A DNA stretch of 64,000 bases from Serratia proteamaculans (GTDB taxonomy: Bacteria; Pseudomonadota; Gammaproteobacteria; Enterobacterales; Enterobacteriaceae), in contig NZ_SWDE01000003.1 of the NCBI RefSeq assembly GCF_013337185.1, forward strand, positions 124,001 through 188,000. Reading direction: 5' to 3'. The position numbers were made by a program, and so were the translations under genes. Below are positions 32,447 to 39,329 of the stretch, one piece after another (positions within the stretch are counted from its first letter, which is position 1; the number at the start of each line of letters is the position of its first letter). Below the pieces are notes generated by a model. That model saw nothing but the letters and a program-made list of their open reading frames with translations, did no database searches and was not told where the DNA came from.

Positions 32447-33862
32447 TCAGACCGGCAGCTCACCGCGGCTGGCCTTGCGTTTGTAAACCATGATGGTCAG
32501 TACCAGCGGGATCACCACCGCCACCAGGATCGCCACCGTATAAATCATCCAGAACTGCGGTTTGATCGACAGAATGCCCGGCAAACCACCGACGCCGATA
32601 CCGTTGGCCATCACGCCGTCCAGGCCGCAGATCAGCCCGGCGAAGGCGGAGCCGATCATCGCGCACAGCATCGGGAAACGGTACTTCAGGTTGATCCCGT
32701 ACATCGCCGGTTCGGTCACGCCGAGGTAGGCGGAGATGGCCGCCGGCACCGAGATTTCACGCTCGTTGGCCTTGCGGCTGACAATGATAATGCCCAGCAC
32801 CGCCGAGGCCTGCGCAATGTTGGACAGCGCAATCAGTGGCCAGACCGGGGTGCCGCCCATGCTCTGGATCATCTGCATATCGATGGCCAGCGTGGTCTGG
32901 TGTACGCCGGTAATCACCAGCGGCGCATACAGGAAGCCAAACAGCGCGGCACCAATAGGGGCGAAGCTGCCGGTCATCACGGCCTTCACCGCCCAGGCTA
33001 CGCCATCGCCAATCATGCGGCCGAACGGCCCGATAAACGCATGCGCCAGGAACACCGCCAGCAGCAGGGAAACCACCGGCACCACCACCAGATACAGGTA
33101 ATCCGGCACGATCTTTTTCAAGCGGGTCTCAATCCAGCCCAGCGCCATACCGGCCAGCATGGAGGGGATCACCTGCGCCTGATAGCCGACTTTCTGAATG
33201 GTGAACCAGCCAAAGTTCCACACTTCCGGGATCTGTTGCCCGAGCTGATAGGAGTTCATCAGTTGCGGGGACACCAGCGTGATGCCCAGCACGATACCCA
33301 GCACCGGCGTGCCGCCCATTTTTTTCACCGTCGACCAGCAAATGGCGACCGGCAGGAACATGAAGATGGCTTCACCGAGCAGCCACAGGAAGTCGTAAAT
33401 GGTTTTCCACGCCGGATGCATCTGCGCCAGCGTTTGGCCGCCGGACATCGGGATGTCGCCGATCACGTTGCGGAAACCGAGGATCAAACCGCCGCTGATT
33501 AAAGCAGGCAGCAGGGGGAAGAAGATTTCGGCGAAGTGCGAGATGGCGCGTTCGCTCCAGGTCATGTTCTGGCGTGCTGCGACCTTGGCCTGCTCTTTGT
33601 CGGCTTCATTGACGCCGGTGGTGGCGATCAGGGCCTGGTAGTAATCCCCGACCTCGGGGCCGATCACTACCTGGAATTGCCCGGCGTTGGTGAAGCAGCC
33701 TTTGACCATCGGCAACTCTTCGATTTCTTTCGGTTTGGCCAGGGCTGGGTCATTGAGAACAAAACGCAGCCTGGTAATGCAGTGGCTGACGGTAGCGATA
33801 TTCTCGCGCCCGCCCACCAACACAATCAGGCGATCGATATCCTGCTGTTTTACTTTGCTCAT
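32447..33862 (-). CDS. treB: Trehalose-specific PTS enzyme IIBC TreB
   Basis: TreB imports and phosphorylates trehalose, using the soluble EIIA-Glc (Crr) since no IIA domain is present. The 471-residue protein has an N-terminal IIB domain with the phosphorylated cysteine C28 in SHCITRLRF and a IIC membrane domain (about 110-460) with about ten helices. The length and sequence agree with E. coli TreB (473 aa). ATG 33862 has an AAAGG site. A TreR-type operator lies 90 bases upstream. In E. coli treR is next to treB; here it is 4.5 kb away. Confidence 0.96.
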   Translation of the reverse strand: MSKVKQQDIDRLIVLVGGRENIATVSHCITRLRFVLNDPALAKPKEIEELPMVKGCFTNAGQFQVVIGPEVGDYYQALIATTGVNEADKEQAKVAARQNMTWSERAISHFAEIFFPLLPALISGGLILGFRNVIGDIPMSGGQTLAQMHPAWKTIYDFLWLLGEAIFMFLPVAICWSTVKKMGGTPVLGIVLGITLVSPQLMNSYQLGQQIPEVWNFGWFTIQKVGYQAQVIPSMLAGMALGWIETRLKKIVPDYLYLVVVPVVSLLLAVFLAHAFIGPFGRMIGDGVAWAVKAVMTGSFAPIGAALFGFLYAPLVITGVHQTTLAIDMQMIQSMGGTPVWPLIALSNIAQASAVLGIIIVSRKANEREISVPAAISAYLGVTEPAMYGINLKYRFPMLCAMIGSAFAGLICGLDGVMANGIGVGGLPGILSIKPQFWMIYTVAILVAVVIPLVLTIMVYKRKASRGELPV

Positions 33863-33951
33863 TATTAGATACCTTTCTTGGTATGGGACTGCCGCAGAGG
33901 TGTTGTTGGAGTAATGATCAAAGCTTAGTCACTCCGCTTTTTTTATGAAAT

Positions 33952-33963
33952 GGGAACGTTCCC
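33952..33963. promoter_or_regulatory. Probable TreR operator
   Basis: GGGAACGTTCCC is a perfect 12-base palindrome, the form bound by TreR and other LacI-family repressors. It lies 90 bases upstream of the treB start and within the region that would carry the treBC promoter. Confidence 0.72.
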
Positions 33964-34056
33964 GGTTTGGGGCGAGGATCACAAAACGATAAAAAAATGA
34001 CCATTTATCCAGCAGGGAATTTTTGCGAGCTGACCGAAACATCCGGAAATATTATC

Positions 34057-34083
34057 TTGAACAAGCGCATAGGCGGCTATACT
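34057..34083 (+). promoter_or_regulatory. Possible promoter of the lipoprotein gene
   Basis: TTGAAC (34057-34062) and TATACT (34078-34083) resemble sigma-70 boxes, but the spacer of 15 bases is short. It lies about 100 bases before the lipoprotein ATG. The rest of 33964-34184 shows no gene. Confidence 0.35.
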
Positions 34084-34184
34084 GTCACCCTTAACAATCA
34101 ATAAGTTGATTTAAATTAGCGCGACTCGTTAGTCCAATACGTTATGTGATCGCCACTACCACGCACTTTTTTCAAGGAAGAATG

Positions 34185-34598
34185 ATGACTTTGACATTGC
34201 CCCGGATCCTTATTGTCTTCACCGCGCTGTTCCTGAGCGCCTGTACCAGCCAAAAAAGCAGCCCGGAACGTCACGCCCGGCATGCGATTTATCAAATGGC
34301 GCGCGAGGATTTTTCTCCAGAAATACGAACCCAAATTCCGGACTCGATAAAAGCCTCTATTCCGTTCTTTGACCAGTTCTATCAAATGGGGAAGGCCGAT
34401 CGGGCCAAGGGATTGACGCGCCAGCAGGCACAGCAGCGGGAAGCCTATTTCCGCAGCCCTGAATTCCTTAGCGACGTGGGGAAGAAAGGGAAATTTATCA
34501 ATCAGGAATATTCAGTGGATAACCCGCAAAAACAACGGCAGATCCTGCTGGATTCCGCCGTGGCTACCTACTGGGATGGCTATGACGGCCGGCCTTGA
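34185..34598 (+). CDS. Small lipoprotein, Exc2-like
   Basis: The 137-residue protein has a clear lipoprotein signal: hydrophobic residues 7-19 and lipobox LSAC with the lipidated cysteine C20. After it comes a soluble, mostly helical domain with repeated Tyr, Phe and Arg. Position +2 after the cysteine is Thr, so an outer-membrane location is likely. It resembles the Exc2 family of enterobacterial lipoproteins in length and layout, but I am not certain of the family. Start: two ATGs (34182, 34185) follow AAGGAAGA; the second has better spacing. It is the only plus-strand gene in the treB-treR islet, and its link to the bacteriocin operon is unproven. Confidence 0.72.
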   Translation: MTLTLPRILIVFTALFLSACTSQKSSPERHARHAIYQMAREDFSPEIRTQIPDSIKASIPFFDQFYQMGKADRAKGLTRQQAQQREAYFRSPEFLSDVGKKGKFINQEYSVDNPQKQRQILLDSAVATYWDGYDGRP

Positions 34599-34627
34599 GG
34601 GGTATAGATAAATACGTTATTAATAAA

Positions 34628-34661
34628 AAATGCCCAATAAACGATAGTTTGTTGGGCATTT
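34628..34661. terminator. Bidirectional terminator between lipoprotein and bacteriocin genes
   Basis: AAATGCCCAATAAAC (34628-34642) pairs with GTTTGTTGGGCATTT (34647-34661) around GATA, with one T-G wobble. A-runs on the left and T-rich bases on the right allow use from either side. It ends both the lipoprotein transcript and the bacteriocin operon. Confidence 0.85.
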
Positions 34662-34694
34662 GTTTAAATAATCCTGTTTAGAAATGGTGGAAGA

Positions 34695-34961
34695 TTAAAG
34701 CAGATTAAATTTATCCAGGGTCGCTTTTACTTCTTTTCTCAACCCAGATTCATCCAGTTCATAATCAGCACGATCTGAATCTGGATTATAAATCTCAGCC
34801 ACCATAAATAGTTCTTCACCACAATTTAAGATATTCTTGTCTTGATCTTTAATGCCGTATAGCTTACGTCTTTCAACACATATTTCCTCAGAGAACTGAA
34901 GCGCATTAACTTTTGATTCTAAAAAACTTCTAGCTAATTCAATTATCGCCATTTTGTTCAT
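34695..34961 (-). CDS. Colicin D immunity protein (ImmD-type)
   Basis: The 88-residue acidic protein is strongly similar to the immunity protein of colicin D in length and motifs: [37 protein letters not shown] and [14 protein letters not shown]. In the known complex this four-helix protein covers the tRNase active site. It overlaps the colicin stop as ATGA on the same strand, so toxin and immunity are co-translated. The gene is visibly more AT-rich than chromosomal neighbours, a sign of transfer. Confidence 0.93.
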
Positions 34962-36889
34962 AAATCACCTGTCTCTAAATAGATTCTACCATTATCTGCA
35001 TCGGGGTTTATTTTCCATCCGGAGAGAAAATCACCGTTGGCTTTGATTATTACAACCCTCATGCTTTTGGGATTGAAGTAAACTTTAGATCCCTTTTCCC
35101 TTCGATAAGTTCCCTTCTCGATGGTCTCTTTATCTGCCAAATGTGCATTGATCTCATCGCGGAATTTTGCCAACGTTTCACGATTTTTCTTTGCGTCACT
35201 GATACCAAAATCAATGGCATGTTTGTATTTCTTGTCCAATTGTTTACGAGTAAAACGTCCTGAGTCAAGTGGATCACTTAGCATCACATAAATCGCTTCC
35301 ACGCCGCTGCCTGTGGCGTCCGGCTGCCAGTAAATGAAATCCTGCAACTGCGGGACGTCGCTCGCCGGAAAGCTGGTGGTGACGATACTATCTGCCTGCT
35401 TTATGTCAGTGCCGGTATGCACCGGCGTCACTGGCACCGGGGCGTCGTTGCCGGTATGAGACGGGGCTGTAGGCCTTACAGGTGCCGGATTGATCAGGAT
35501 GGTTCTCGATGGTGCCCCGGCCATCGCCGGTAACACTATTCTGTCCAGGCCCGTTTCTTTATCACGTACCGGGCGATGCACCGGCACGCTGGCGGAAACG
35601 CCGCCGGCCCCTGTTTTAACCAGTATCACCTCTTGCTGACCGTTGTTCCCCATGGCAATAAAACCGCGTACCGGTAAATTGACCACGTTCATTTCTGGTT
35701 GGACAGGGGAGTACCCGGCGGCAAATAGGCTTGCCTGGGCAGCAAACATCTCTATGTTGCGTCCAGGTACTATGTCACTACCCTCGCCAGCTTTCCGCGG
35801 CCAGAAGCCGATGACAAAAGCGCCCACAGTCGGACCTATAGCGCTGACTGTTGCTATTCGGGAAACTTCAGCTACGCCACGCCACACTGAGCTCGATACC
35901 CAGCCTGCCAACTCGCTGGCTGTCGTCATGGCGCTGTTAGCCACCGTAGATAACTGCACCATGCCACTTGCACGGTTAAGCACGATTGTCCCTGCTGCTG
36001 CCAACGCTGCATTGGCTGCTTTCAGCTTTTCGGGGGGGTAAGCCGGTGCATCCAAAATACCCGCTTTGGCAAACAGCGCTTTCCTTGCCTCTTCAACTTT
36101 TCGGGCTTCCTCGGCCCTGCGGGATTCTTCGGCCCTGCGGGCTTCCTCGGCCTTGCGGGCTTCTTCGGCAGCAAACTCTAATTCTCTAAGGCGATGGACT
36201 TCATTTTCTTTTTCTCGCTGTTCGTTCTCAAGAACACTCACACGTTGCCTTGCTGTCTCAGCATCTATTTTATGCTGCTGTTCTTCTCGACGTTTTTCTT
36301 TCGCTTTTTTACTATTTTCTTTTCTGTAATTATTCCTCCAAGACGTAGCATCATATGCCATGAACATTTCTTCATTATAATATTTGGTATATTCTTCATG
36401 CGCCCTGCTTTTGTTCGCATTATGGCGCAGAACATTCAACCGCTCTTGCTTTACCTTTAATTTACTGAGCACCAGATTAAGACTGGCTTTCTCTAATTCT
36501 GTATGCTGTGGTTGTGTTAATTGACTACTGACATTAGCAATATCCTTATCGGTTTCTTGCATTTTCCTTTCAAGATCACTGGTAATACCAGAGGCTAAAT
36601 CGATCGCTTTATTTGCGTCGTCACGATAGATCTTCTTAGCCTCGTCCCCGAAAGGTATGACATCGTCATTTTCAGGATGAATAGAGATTGGCTTATTGAT
36701 ATCTGCAATCTTTTCAAAAACCTTGGTCAAGGGCTCTGGTTTTTTAGGTGGCCCCCCTACCCAAGCTTCAACAAGCATATTACCTTCGTTGTCAGAGAAG
36801 CCTCGCTGCCAACCCTCGCCACGCCACCCATATCCCATAGAGGTCATCACATCACGTTCAAACTGCGTTGTATCTTCGTATCGAGCCAC
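34958..36889 (-). CDS. S-type pyocin/colicin D bacteriocin (anticodon tRNase)
   Basis: The 643-residue protein (from GTG 36889) is a nuclease bacteriocin. The order is a short N-terminus (1-85), a long charged coiled coil (about 95-272) with AEEARK-type repeats, a Pyocin_S translocation domain (about 275-525), and a C-terminal domain (about 540-643) nearly identical in layout to that of colicin D. The catalytic histidine H557 in KYKHAIDFG stands 86 residues from the C-terminus, exactly as H611 stands in 697-residue colicin D. Colicin D cuts the anticodon loop of tRNA-Arg. GTG 36889 is chosen because GAGGAG precedes it by six bases; other in-frame codons lack a site. There is no obvious TonB or Tol box and no known receptor-binding domain, and a tail-fibre gene lies 56 bases upstream. 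Confidence 0.92.
36101..36172 (-). repeat. Four 18-bp tandem repeats in the coiled coil of the bacteriocin
   Basis: Units of the form GCGGGCTTCCTCGGCCCT (plus strand) start at 36101, 36119, 36137 and 36155, differing by one to four bases. They encode hexapeptide steps of the E-A-R-K-A-E/R-A-E-E-S-R type in the stalk. Such arrays can change copy number by slippage and alter stalk length. Confidence 0.85.
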
Positions 36890-36945
36890 ATCAAGCTCCT
36901 CTTCAAAAACAAGCAAATCACCGAGTGTATAAACGACGATGTTGG

Positions 36946-38082
36946 CTAAACCTGTTTACCGCTAGTCGCTTCTTCCAACGCAACCAAGCGTAATTCCAGC
37001 GCAAGCCGGGCCTCACGCTCTTCCTTTAACGCTTCGACCAGAAGGGCGACCACGCCATTGATATTAATTCCGCGGGCGTCTTTCAAAACGCTGCCGTCAT
37101 TTAATTTCAGTTCGGTGGTGGTGACGGATTGAGGTAATACATTCTCTACTTCCTGGGCAATGACCCCGGCTTCCGGCACGCCCTGTTTCAGGTAGGTATA
37201 ACCGCCAATTTTCCCCAGCTTCTCCAGTGCGCCTTCAATTTTTTCGATGTCGGTTTTCATGCGAACATCGGAGCTGCTGTTCCAGGCACCGTTGGTATAC
37301 GCATGGCCGTCGTTGCGGAATTCATACCAGCCGTCAGCGCCTCCATTGGCAACGTGCAGCGCCAGCATGTGGTGTTTGCCGATTCGTTCATAGTGGTATA
37401 GGTCGGCGGACAGGTTTCCCGCTCCCTGTACATGCAGGCCGTTGGTAATGCGGTCGGCATTATTGTTAACGTTTTTATTGCCAGCAGCCCAAATCCAACC
37501 ATCGGCATTGCGTTTGATTAATTGCCCGACCGAAAGCTCGCTGTTGGCTCTGACCTGTAATTCGTTCCAGTTCCCCTGCCAGTCACGGTAAGAGAGCAAG
37601 CCATGATCCTCCTTGCCGGCGACAACGCGCGATCCCATCAACATGGTGGTGGTCACATTGCCGCTGGTGAAACCGGCACTGACGTCTGCAGCATAGTAGA
37701 CTTGCCCTGCGATCAGCGGTGTTGGGCCGGTGGTCGCAGTGGAAACACCGGCATTGTGCGACACCATAGCGCCGCCGGAGATATCGACGCCGTTACGAAG
37801 TGCAACCCGGCCACTTGAGAGGTTAAAAGAGAAGGGGCGCAGGGTGTTCCACAGTCCGTCCTGTGCCTGGCCGCTTGGCGTGGTCAGGGCGTAAAAATCC
37901 TTACCGTCGTTACGCAGCATCACGCCGGTATTGCCGTTTGCCAGACGGAAACCGTTTGCTGCCTTGGTCACAATTTCCTCGTCACTGATGATGCGTTTAC
38001 GCAGGGTGGTCAGGGATTTCAGCTCAGTCACATCGTCATTAACGCCGTTAGTCACCTGAGCATTTTTCTTTTCTTCAGCCAT
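36946..38082 (-). CDS. Tail-fibre-like protein with S74 self-cleaving chaperone domain
   Basis: The 378-residue protein starts with a short region (1-40), then repeated fibre-like segments (GFRLANGNTGVMLRNDGKDFYALTT, about 42-265). It ends in an intramolecular chaperone of the peptidase S74 family (about 268-378). The cleavage site is the conserved Ser-Asp S271-D272 in WNSSSDVRMKTDI, with K276; GVIAQEVENVLPQSV and the C-terminal coiled coil are also typical. In phage endosialidases and fibres this domain trimerises the protein and is then released. There is no phage structural, lysis or replication gene nearby; the next gene is the bacteriocin. I chose ATG 38082, whose product begins MAEEKKN. 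It probably is the first gene of the SOS-controlled operon. Confidence 0.86.
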   Translation of the reverse strand: MAEEKKNAQVTNGVNDDVTELKSLTTLRKRIISDEEIVTKAANGFRLANGNTGVMLRNDGKDFYALTTPSGQAQDGLWNTLRPFSFNLSSGRVALRNGVDISGGAMVSHNAGVSTATTGPTPLIAGQVYYAADVSAGFTSGNVTTTMLMGSRVVAGKEDHGLLSYRDWQGNWNELQVRANSELSVGQLIKRNADGWIWAAGNKNVNNNADRITNGLHVQGAGNLSADLYHYERIGKHHMLALHVANGGADGWYEFRNDGHAYTNGAWNSSSDVRMKTDIEKIEGALEKLGKIGGYTYLKQGVPEAGVIAQEVENVLPQSVTTTELKLNDGSVLKDARGININGVVALLVEALKEEREARLALELRLVALEEATSGKQV

Positions 38083-38214
38083 GATTATCTTCCTTTTCGA
38101 CATTCTGTTTCCTGATGGTTAACAGCGTCCGGTCCCCTCCGTTGCTCCTGAATGGCAGGTCTGGGGAGGTACACATTCCGTGTGCTGAAAAACCGCTAAA
38201 ACACACAGATAGCA

Positions 38215-38230
38215 CTGTGTGTATAAACAG
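38215..38230. promoter_or_regulatory. LexA (SOS) box of the fibre-bacteriocin operon
   Basis: CTGTGTGTATAAACAG fits the LexA pattern CTGT-N8-ACAG exactly. It lies 133 bases upstream of the fibre ATG. Colicin operons are typically held off by LexA until DNA damage. A 7-base inverted repeat CACACAG/CTGTGTG (38202-38221) overlaps it and may be a second operator. The remainder of 38083-38381 shows no gene. Confidence 0.8.
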
Positions 38231-38381
38231 TAATTTACTTGGCTGGGTGAAGAAGGTCGATTAGCGGTTGTTGCGTGGTGGCTGGCACAAAAATAGCGAT
38301 GAATTGACGCTCACTGGGTGTGAGCATCAACAGGGGATTTCAGGCTGAAGGATATGGGGAGCTAAACAACTCCCCTCGTTA

Positions 38382-39329
38382 TCAGGCGAGTTGGCTTGGC
38401 ACGATGATCTGGCGGATACCCTGTTCGCCGCTGAGCTGGCCCAGCAGCTGTTGGGCGGCCTGCAGCCCGGCCGTGCCGTAGCCCAGATCAACCGAAAAGG
38501 TTTCGGGGAACAGGAAGTTTAGCAGCGGGGTATTACCGATACCGCACACTTGCAGCGGGGCAATATGCTGCTGTTGCAGGTATTTGATCGCACCCAGGGC
38601 GATAGTGTCGGAGGCGCACACCAGCGCGGTGGTCTGCGCATCGATGACCGAGGCGGCCAGTTGGAAACCACTCTGATAGCTCAGTTCGCCCAGCGCCACG
38701 CTCGGGGTAATCTGCTGTTGCCGGCAGGCGTCGAGATAGGCCTGGTGGCGGCGCATACCGGTGGTGGCATCCGACAGTTGCACCCCCAGGTAGCCGATAT
38801 GCCGGTGCCCCTGTTGCTGCAGGCGTTCCATCAGCAGCCGCACGGCACCGTCGTCGTCGTAGCAAACCGAAGAAAACCCCTCGTATTCGCGCGCCAGCAC
38901 CACCATTTTATCCTGCCACGGGCTGAGCATCGCTGCCGTAAGATCGGTGAAACCGAACAGGATCACTCCGTCGACATTACGCTGCTGCAGAACGTGCAAA
39001 TGCTCTTCCACCAGCCGGGTCTCGAACTGGCTTTCCATCACGATCGGGTCGAAGCCGTGCTGATACAGCAACGGCAACATGGTGCGTACCGCCTGGTTTT
39101 CAGACGGAGAGTCGAGACGGGAAACGATAATGCCGACCACTTTGTCGCTCTGGCCACGCATGGCGCGTGCCGATTTGGACGGGGTGAACCCCTGCTGACG
39201 GATCACCGCTTCCACCCGTTCGCGGGTCTGCGGGCTCACGCTGCCTTCGTTGTTCAGCACGCGTGATACGGTGGATTTACCTACGCCGCTCAGGCGTGCG
39301 ATGTCCTTGATGGTCAGCCGGTTTTGCAT
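38382..39329 (-). CDS. treR: Trehalose repressor TreR (LacI family)
   Basis: TreR represses treBC and is induced by trehalose 6-phosphate. The 315-residue protein has the LacI HTH at the N-terminus (TIKDIARLSGVGKSTVSRVLNN) and a periplasmic-binding-like core; it equals E. coli TreR in length. ATG 39329 is the natural start. The matching operator GGGAACGTTCCC is upstream of treB. The bacteriocin islet separates regulator and target. Confidence 0.94.
   Translation of the reverse strand: MQNRLTIKDIARLSGVGKSTVSRVLNNEGSVSPQTRERVEAVIRQQGFTPSKSARAMRGQSDKVVGIIVSRLDSPSENQAVRTMLPLLYQHGFDPIVMESQFETRLVEEHLHVLQQRNVDGVILFGFTDLTAAMLSPWQDKMVVLAREYEGFSSVCYDDDGAVRLLMERLQQQGHRHIGYLGVQLSDATTGMRRHQAYLDACRQQQITPSVALGELSYQSGFQLAASVIDAQTTALVCASDTIALGAIKYLQQQHIAPLQVCGIGNTPLLNFLFPETFSVDLGYGTAGLQAAQQLLGQLSGEQGIRQIIVPSQLA

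What the first reader, a model, noticed from the sequence alone, without database searches (positions are those of the whole stretch)
34695..38230. SOS-controlled operon pairing a self-cleaving tail-fibre protein with a colicin D-type bacteriocin
Seen: a LexA box, then a 378-aa S74 fibre, then (57 bases on) a 643-aa Pyocin_S/colicin D tRNase and its immunity protein, closed by a terminator. No phage tail, lysis or replication gene is present. The bacteriocin has no recognisable receptor-binding domain or TonB/Tol box, while the fibre is a typical receptor binder. Known: S74 domains trimerise phage fibres; nuclease colicins usually carry their own receptor domain. Inference: the fibre may supply target recognition as a separate subunit, a two-component bacteriocin that I do not know to be described.
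Basis: partly seen in the sequence, partly recalled or inferred. Interest (0 to 1): 0.88.

Follow-up and report, generated by a model that had tools for sequence, protein, structure and literature searches.

The report
Serratia bacteriocin with phage-fibre partner gene
A Serratia chromosome carries what looks like an SOS-controlled set of three genes, a phage-type fibre, a bacteria-killing toxin and its antidote, which belongs to the known klebicin C/D family; the toxin appears to have its own entry domain, and what the faithfully kept fibre does is still an open question.

Summary
The operon is real: LexA-type box, S74 fibre, colicin D-type tRNase bacteriocin, immunity protein and terminator-like repeat, between treR and treB of a Serratia. 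It is not a new architecture. Klebicins C and D have the same three genes, and print already compares the fibre-like protein with colicin receptor-binding domains (PMC10269471, citing Chavan 2005). A klebicin C hybrid kills as a purified toxin-immunity complex.

New here: the fibre goes with one clade of toxin core domain. Of 55 cores scored, 35 are fibre-linked (55-100% identical to this one) and 20 fibre-less (28-47%). Toxin import domains of about eight types, and several nucleases, sit behind related fibres. The fibre is under purifying selection, and its tip varies and recombines apart from its frame. One relative replaces S74 by another tail plus a chaperone gene.

Best reading: an accessory, separately evolving recognition subunit that cooperates with a toxin already able to enter cells. 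Contact and need are untested. New member of a known kind, with an old question made testable.

The parts
38215..38230 (.). LexA-type palindrome CTGTTTATACACACAG (read on the - strand), about 150 bases upstream of the fibre start
   Evidence: CTG-N10-CAG in 33 of 36 distinct upstream regions, the window's own included; 12 of 24 in a second set made mostly of viral contigs
36946..38082 (-). S74 fibre gene (378 aa from the conserved MAEEKKNAQV start; an ATG at 38103 gives 385 aa)
37723..38082 (-). conserved fibre frame, residues 8-127 (385-aa numbering), with a T4 gp34/Tail fiber protein S-like segment
   Evidence: low entropy, dN/dS 0.084 for residues 8-120
37273..37722 (-). variable, recombining fibre tip, residues 128-277
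   Evidence: entropy; distances of tip and frame uncorrelated, Mantel r 0.09 in 23 rows; 42.6-100% identity among 24 rows
36949..37272 (-). S74 intramolecular chaperone with predicted Ser278/Lys283 dyad and Arg281, then C-terminal helix
   Evidence: the three residues invariant in 18 of 18 fibres of A3; dyad and arginine roles from PMC3742443 passages
34958..36889 (-). bacteriocin, 643 aa, GTG start
36170..36889 (-). toxin import domain, residues 1-240: colicin FY-like N-terminus plus long helices
36767..36781 (-). TonB-box-like NMLVE (residues 37-41), aligned with TMTVT of colicin FY
   Evidence: function inferred
35255..36100 (-). Pyocin_S central (core) domain, residues 264-545, the part shared by fibre-linked toxins
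34961..35242 (-). colicin D-type tRNase domain; the five residues named as essential in colicin D (K607, K608, H611, D614, S677) are kept
   Evidence: alignment; residue list from PMC3482391 passage
34695..34961 (-). immunity protein, 88 aa
   Evidence: PF09204, E=4.5e-11
34625..34664 (.). terminator-like inverted repeat, 18-nt arms
   Evidence: I2; not listed by the scan

Best explanation
The locus is a klebicin C/D-type ('phage-associated') bacteriocin operon under LexA. On SOS induction the cell makes (i) a fibre that is predicted to trimerise and cut itself before Ser278, leaving a spike whose variable tip is exposed, and (ii) a complete colicin-like toxin with its immunity protein. The toxin carries its own Ton-dependent import domain (colicin FY-like), a Pyocin_S core and a colicin D tRNase. 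The fibre is a co-released accessory recognition subunit: its tip binds a surface feature of target cells and helps the toxin, while the toxin's own N-terminus selects the outer-membrane protein and drives entry. Shown by sequence: operon, domains, an import domain by homology, conservation, tip variation, and association with one core clade. Inferred: self-cleavage, SOS control, Ton dependence, tip binding, co-release, and that fibre and toxin cooperate or touch.
For: Same three-gene order in klebicins C and D. Of 19 loci of the named genome scan, 18 have a fibre frame of full-length size; a toxin frame follows in 17 of these 18 by the script's criterion, and in the 18th it is cut by the contig end. 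17 of 17 fibre loci in 30 genomes of the genus have a toxin core beside them (coordinates; these genomes overlap with the named ones). On a tree of 55 cores, fibre presence needs 2 changes against a shuffled mean of 16.5. Fibre median dN/dS 0.14 in the 80 of 300 pairs with dS<1.5. Tip recombines apart from the frame; e.g. L077/L086 have frame and S74 97-98% but tips 68% identical. Pluralibacter L087 replaces S74 by another tail plus a tail-assembly chaperone, PF16778. Import domain.
Against: No data on binding, co-purification or killing for this operon. A klebicin C hybrid killed as a purified toxin-immunity complex (PMC8324772 passages), so fibre need is not general. Fibre tip and toxin import type are not clearly linked (partial Mantel r 0.067, 778 of 5000 permutations as high), as an obligate pair might require. 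Association with the core clade could be operon inheritance plus within-clade recombination. Some relatives keep only one partner: L034, L038 and L042 have a fibre or fibre piece without a toxin found, L089 a broken fibre alone, L242 a toxin core behind an IS, and L041, L043 and L044 a toxin behind a fibre remnant. The fibre model was of low confidence (mean pLDDT 44).
Confidence: 0.55

Rival explanations
1. One reading: the toxin lacks a receptor domain and the fibre is its obligate receptor-binding subunit.
For: Fibre and toxin core travel together in nearly all intact loci examined; the fibre tip is variable.
Against: The toxin has a colicin FY-like N-terminus with a TonB-box-like motif. 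Fibres 90-94% identical sit beside toxins with unrelated import domains (window/L071, L075/L080, L081/L084, L085/L088). Partners include toxins with ColA_N or Cloacin domains. A klebicin C hybrid kills as a purified complex with its immunity protein.
Confidence: 0.07
2. The fibre is released with the toxin but works on its own, for example by binding phage or tailocin receptors or glueing cells; the shared promoter is the only link.
For: I know of no fibre-binding motif in such toxins (none was searched for); import types have been exchanged behind related fibres; host group explains fibre relatedness better (2 changes against 7.1 shuffled).
Against: Does not explain why fibres occur with the >=55% core clade and not with the 20 other Pyocin_S toxins examined.
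Confidence: 0.17
3. The fibre acts in the producer: a trimeric carrier or chaperone for the toxin core, or a help for release, since no lysis gene was seen beside the operon.
For: Association is with the central core domain rather than with import domain or nuclease; the conserved fibre frame is the non-tip part; core distances correlate with fibre frame (r 0.35) and S74 (r 0.52) distances, less with the tip (r 0.24).
Against: A varying, recombining tip is not expected of a carrier; 15 of 20 close copies in viral contigs lie among lambdoid genes, where the phage could supply lysis, yet keep the fibre.
Confidence: 0.13
4. The fibre is a phage remnant without function, kept only as a flank for recombination of toxin import domains.
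For: Fibre segments resemble phage tail fibres; close copies ride in lambdoid prophage contigs; import domains have been exchanged between fibre and core.
Against: Purifying selection (median dN/dS 0.14), invariant S74 dyad in 18 of 18, and replacement of S74 by another tail with its own chaperone gene.
Confidence: 0.05

Closest known systems
Klebicins C and D (kcp-kca-kci, kdp-kda-kdi; Chavan et al. 2005, known here only through papers that cite it)
   Same: Same gene order: phage-associated fibre-like protein, activity protein, immunity protein (PMC10269471 passages). Klebicin D is also listed as a Colicin_D-type tRNase (PMC9990079 passages). One homologue at 75-76% identity is annotated 'klebicin C phage associated protein' (H4).
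   Different: Serratia chromosome at the tre locus instead of Klebsiella; the import domain is colicin FY-like instead of the klebicin C TolC-binding type.
Colicin D (E. coli)
   Same: Toxin residues 272-652 (652-aa numbering) align with colicin D, E=1.5e-135; tRNase and immunity type.
   Different: Core 48-49% identical in the listed plasmids with cda; the N-terminal part differs. That colicin D has no fibre gene is recalled, not checked here.
Colicin FY (Yersinia frederiksenii)
   Same: N-terminal import domain, 34% identity over residues 1-221, TonB-box position; FY uses YiuR and, by the title of a cited paper, TonB import.
   Different: Colicin FY is a pore former (same title) on a small plasmid; no fibre gene among the six features shown.
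Telocins (TelA-TelE) of Klebsiella telomere phages
   Same: Bacteriocins carried as phage cargo (PMC12042878 passages).
   Different: Toxin-immunity cassettes; no fibre partner was described in the passages seen.
R-type tailocins (recalled)
   Same: Target recognition by fibres with variable tips.
   Different: No tail, tube or sheath genes were recognised beside this operon; killing is by a nuclease.

Membership tests
Klebicin C/D-type phage-associated bacteriocin | Fibre-like gene directly upstream of activity and immunity genes | tested here: met
   definition from PMC10269471 passages
Klebicin C/D-type phage-associated bacteriocin | Fibre-like protein homologous to Kcp/Kdp | tested here: met
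   H4, annotated 'klebicin C phage associated protein', 75-76% identity; the AY578792/3 records themselves were not compared
Klebicin C/D-type phage-associated bacteriocin | Bactericidal activity | not testable with these tools
   needs an experiment
Colicin D-family tRNase bacteriocin | Colicin_D catalytic domain with essential residues | tested here: met
   PF11429 E=2.3e-13; five of five residues kept
Colicin D-family tRNase bacteriocin | Cognate immunity protein | tested here: met
   PF09204 E=4.5e-11; binding to this toxin untested
Group B (Ton-dependent) colicin | TonB box near the N-terminus and a receptor/translocation domain | tested here: inconclusive
   homology to colicin FY and NMLVE at the TonB-box position; Ton dependence itself untested
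S74 (ICA) self-cleaving fibre | S74 domain with Ser/Lys dyad and Arg | tested here: met
S74 (ICA) self-cleaving fibre | Actual self-cleavage and trimer | not testable with these tools
   monomer model of low confidence
Two-component bacteriocin (fibre as obligate receptor subunit) | Toxin without its own import/receptor domain | tested here: not met
   by homology to colicin FY
Tailocin | Tail tube and baseplate genes beside the fibre | tested here: not met
   none recognised among ORFs of 31.0-41.5 kb as read; only six of these ORFs were searched against family libraries

The most novel reading that the evidence does not exclude
Two-handed bacteriocin: the trimeric fibre and the toxin core assemble into one particle (or act together at the cell surface), with two separately exchangeable targeting modules. 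The fibre tip chooses the surface and the toxin N-terminus chooses the import protein, while the constant pair is fibre frame plus toxin core. This would be a class of colicin-like weapon with a phage-derived docking subunit, spread by plasmids, lambdoid prophages and a chromosomal hot spot.
Probability: 0.33. Interest if true: 0.85.

Novelty: new member of a known kind. Interest (0 to 1): 0.5.

Why it matters
The phage-associated gene of klebicins C and D was reported in 2005 (by citation), and in the listings and passages that I saw I found no experiment on its function (searches; open-licence papers only). The comparison here sharpens the question: among the near-complete toxin cores examined, one clade comes with the fibre, while import domain and nuclease have been exchanged. 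If the fibre gives the toxin a second recognition step, natural colicin-like weapons have a modular docking part that work with purified toxins would miss, and published killing spectra of such toxins may not reflect the natural mixture. If it does not, the fibre's purifying selection needs another reason.

Tried and rejected
Considered and rejected: fibre as isolated phage remnant (conservation and dN/dS; no phage record at 60% identity or more among the 1296 with a match; but 20 viral contigs, most with lambdoid neighbours, do carry it at 62-74%, so phage carriage is real). Fibre as substitute for a missing receptor domain. Loss of LexA control in all prophage copies (12 of 24 upstream regions keep CTG-N10-CAG, several as an overlapping pair). 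Strict coupling of fibre tip to toxin import type (no clear signal for the tip). For fibre S74 against import type with host group held constant a residual association remains (r 0.225, 4 of 5000), and import types are mildly clustered on the fibre tree (12 changes, shuffled mean 15.6, 14 of 2000 as low). I count these as results against full independence.
Full report
OBSERVATION. The operon is on the minus strand between treR (38382-39329) and an Exc2-family lipoprotein gene plus treB. It holds a LexA-type palindrome (38215-38230), a fibre with a gp34-like segment and an S74 domain, a 643-aa toxin with Pyocin_S and Colicin_D domains, and a Colicin_immun immunity protein. The nearest named locus is Serratia quinivorans L071 (fibre 91%, TreR 99%), so I take it as Serratia. 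One palindrome in 64 kb is what chance gives (0.62 expected), but CTG-N10-CAG lies within 300 bases upstream of the fibre in 33 of 36 distinct upstream regions, the window's own included. In a second set of 24 upstream regions (20 viral contigs, L165, L166, and again L085 and L088, two of the three misses) it was found in 12.

ALREADY IN PRINT. [quoted passage not shown] 2005, which is not held). For klebicin C, a purified hybrid with the E9 DNase and Im9 kills Klebsiella, and TolC is likely both receptor and translocator; no word beginning with phage, tail or operon occurs in that paper's main text (PMC8324772 passages; a word such as bacteriophage would not have been counted). Toxins with the klebicin C TonB-box sequence MVSLG (from PMC10906532 passages) occur here behind a fibre in L088 and L168, and the latter has an rRNase-type domain, so klebicin C probably belongs to the fibre-linked group. 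That is inference.

FIBRE AND TOXIN CORE TRAVEL TOGETHER. The scan of one genome for each of 84,980 species gave 19 distinct loci. 18 have a fibre frame of full-length size (in L087 only the first 271 residues match). In 17 of these 18 a toxin frame follows on the same strand by the script's criterion; in the 18th (L084) the toxin frame starts 71 bases on and is cut by the contig end. In L086 the toxin frame is split, and in L087 one gene lies between. The 19th (L089) has an IS-broken fibre and no toxin. Of the nine plasmid records that cover at least 80% of the fibre, seven have a toxin downstream (in one, L032, its frame is split; in another, L039, the fibre frame is broken); in L034 a Tn5403 transposase follows the fibre, and in L038 no toxin was found. 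The five near-complete core loci there at 47-49% identity have no fibre in the 1.5 kb held upstream. Of the 20 closest viral contigs (62-74% fibre identity), 18 have the toxin core downstream, and the other two end 118 and about 590 bases after the fibre.

From loci of the best matches in 392 genomes of the family and 30 of the genus, plus plasmid and named loci, 55 distinct cores could be scored: 35 with fibre (55-100% identity to this core) and 20 without (28-47%). Fibre presence needs 2 changes on the tree (shuffled mean 16.5, minimum 9 of 500), and one of the two is a very long branch, L158, that is probably misplaced. The fibre-positive set includes a few loci whose fibre is broken or shortened. 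A plasmid toxin core at 57% (L242), not in the tree, lies behind an IS66 transposase with no fibre annotated. Orphan pieces of the core, not counted, lack a fibre of their own.

MODULES. Toxin N-terminal segments fall into about eight types by BLAST clusters and my reading, among them ColA_N and Cloacin domains. Fibres that are 90-94% identical sit beside unrelated types: window/L071, L075/L080, L081/L084, L085/L088. Nucleases include colicin D tRNase, Cytotoxic (rRNase type) and Col-Pyo DNase. For window and L071, core data reject the sister pair that fibre data favour (AU p=1.5e-8), likewise L082+L083 (9e-5), but not L075+L080 (0.17) or L085+L088 (0.19). So modules recombine, yet within the fibre-linked clade.

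THE FIBRE LOOKS LIKE A WORKING PROTEIN WITH A VARYING TIP. Median dN/dS is 0.14 over the 80 of 300 pairs with dS below 1.5 (by part, with 137, 41 and 94 usable pairs: residues 8-120 0.084, 121-276 0.186, 277-385 0.121; the largest whole-fibre value, 1.6, comes from a nearly identical pair). Entropy is highest in residues 128-267, apart from the last 18 residues, just before the predicted cleavage site at Ser278. Ser278, Arg281 and Lys283 are invariant in 18 of 18 fibres, matching the dyad and arginine described for the ICA domain (PMC3742443 passages). Frame and S74 distances correlate (r 0.68, 0 of 2000 permutations as high), frame and tip do not (r 0.09, 411 of 2000). L077 and L086 share 97-98% of frame and S74 but 68% of the tip; L032 and L082 share 98 and 92% but 63% of the tip. 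In Pluralibacter (L087) the first 271 residues are 62% identical to the window's, while S74 is replaced by another tail and a gene with a tail assembly chaperone domain (PF16778, E=1.8e-7). Fibre relatedness follows host group (Klebsiella and Enterobacter, Serratia, Erwinia: 2 changes, shuffled mean 7.1).

MECHANISM. These facts fit a co-released recognition subunit that cooperates with toxins that can each enter on their own. They do not show contact or need. The exchange of import types behind related fibres speaks against an obligate receptor subunit; the tie to one core clade speaks for some cooperation with the core. Operon inheritance with recombination limited to similar sequences remains a sufficient, duller cause of that tie.

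VERDICT. New member of a known kind. The interest lies in a 20-year-old question that now has clear tests, not in a new architecture.

Noticed in passing
L164:3424-8317 (unnamed Serratia relative); also L073, L076, L079: Downstream of the main toxin-immunity pair lies a row of five orphan nuclease-plus-immunity cassettes (one with a split toxin frame), each keeping a piece of the end of the Pyocin_S core; the last is a colicin D-type pair close to the window's. This looks like the orphan toxin tips of Rhs/CDI systems (recalled) and may feed toxin exchange.
   Followed up: partly
L167-L186 (IMG/VR contigs): 15 of 20 close fibre-toxin copies have lambdoid O, P, NinB, NinG, BstA or Q relatives in the held flanks, so in these contigs the operon seems to ride as prophage cargo. 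In L168 it lies between a BstA relative and antiterminator Q.
   Followed up: partly
L087:971-2828 (Pluralibacter gergoviae): Fibre variant with a non-S74 tail and its own tail-assembly chaperone gene ahead of a toxin with a glycine-rich N-terminus.
   Followed up: partly
window 32447-39329; L071-L074, L076, L091-L096, L098: The place beside treR (and treB, where the flank reaches it) is a repeated home of this operon with different toxins; L126 has TreR and only an orphan core piece.
   Followed up: partly
window 34146-34598: Exc2-family lipoprotein gene (NF033828, E=1.9e-51) converging on the operon.
   Followed up: no
G000:C13:545401-545760 (own genome): A second, distant fibre-like frame (30% identity over residues 33-156, 686-aa frame).
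   Followed up: no
Shigella flexneri plasmid records H150-H155: Short pieces (60 residues, 62% identity) of the end of the Pyocin_S core in genes annotated as S-type pyocin domain proteins.
   Followed up: no
PDB 9hn1/9hn2: Klebicin G has solved structures and aligns with toxin residues 127-616 in 652-aa numbering (E=7e-25); none of the seven chains listed for the fibre is from these entries.
   Followed up: no
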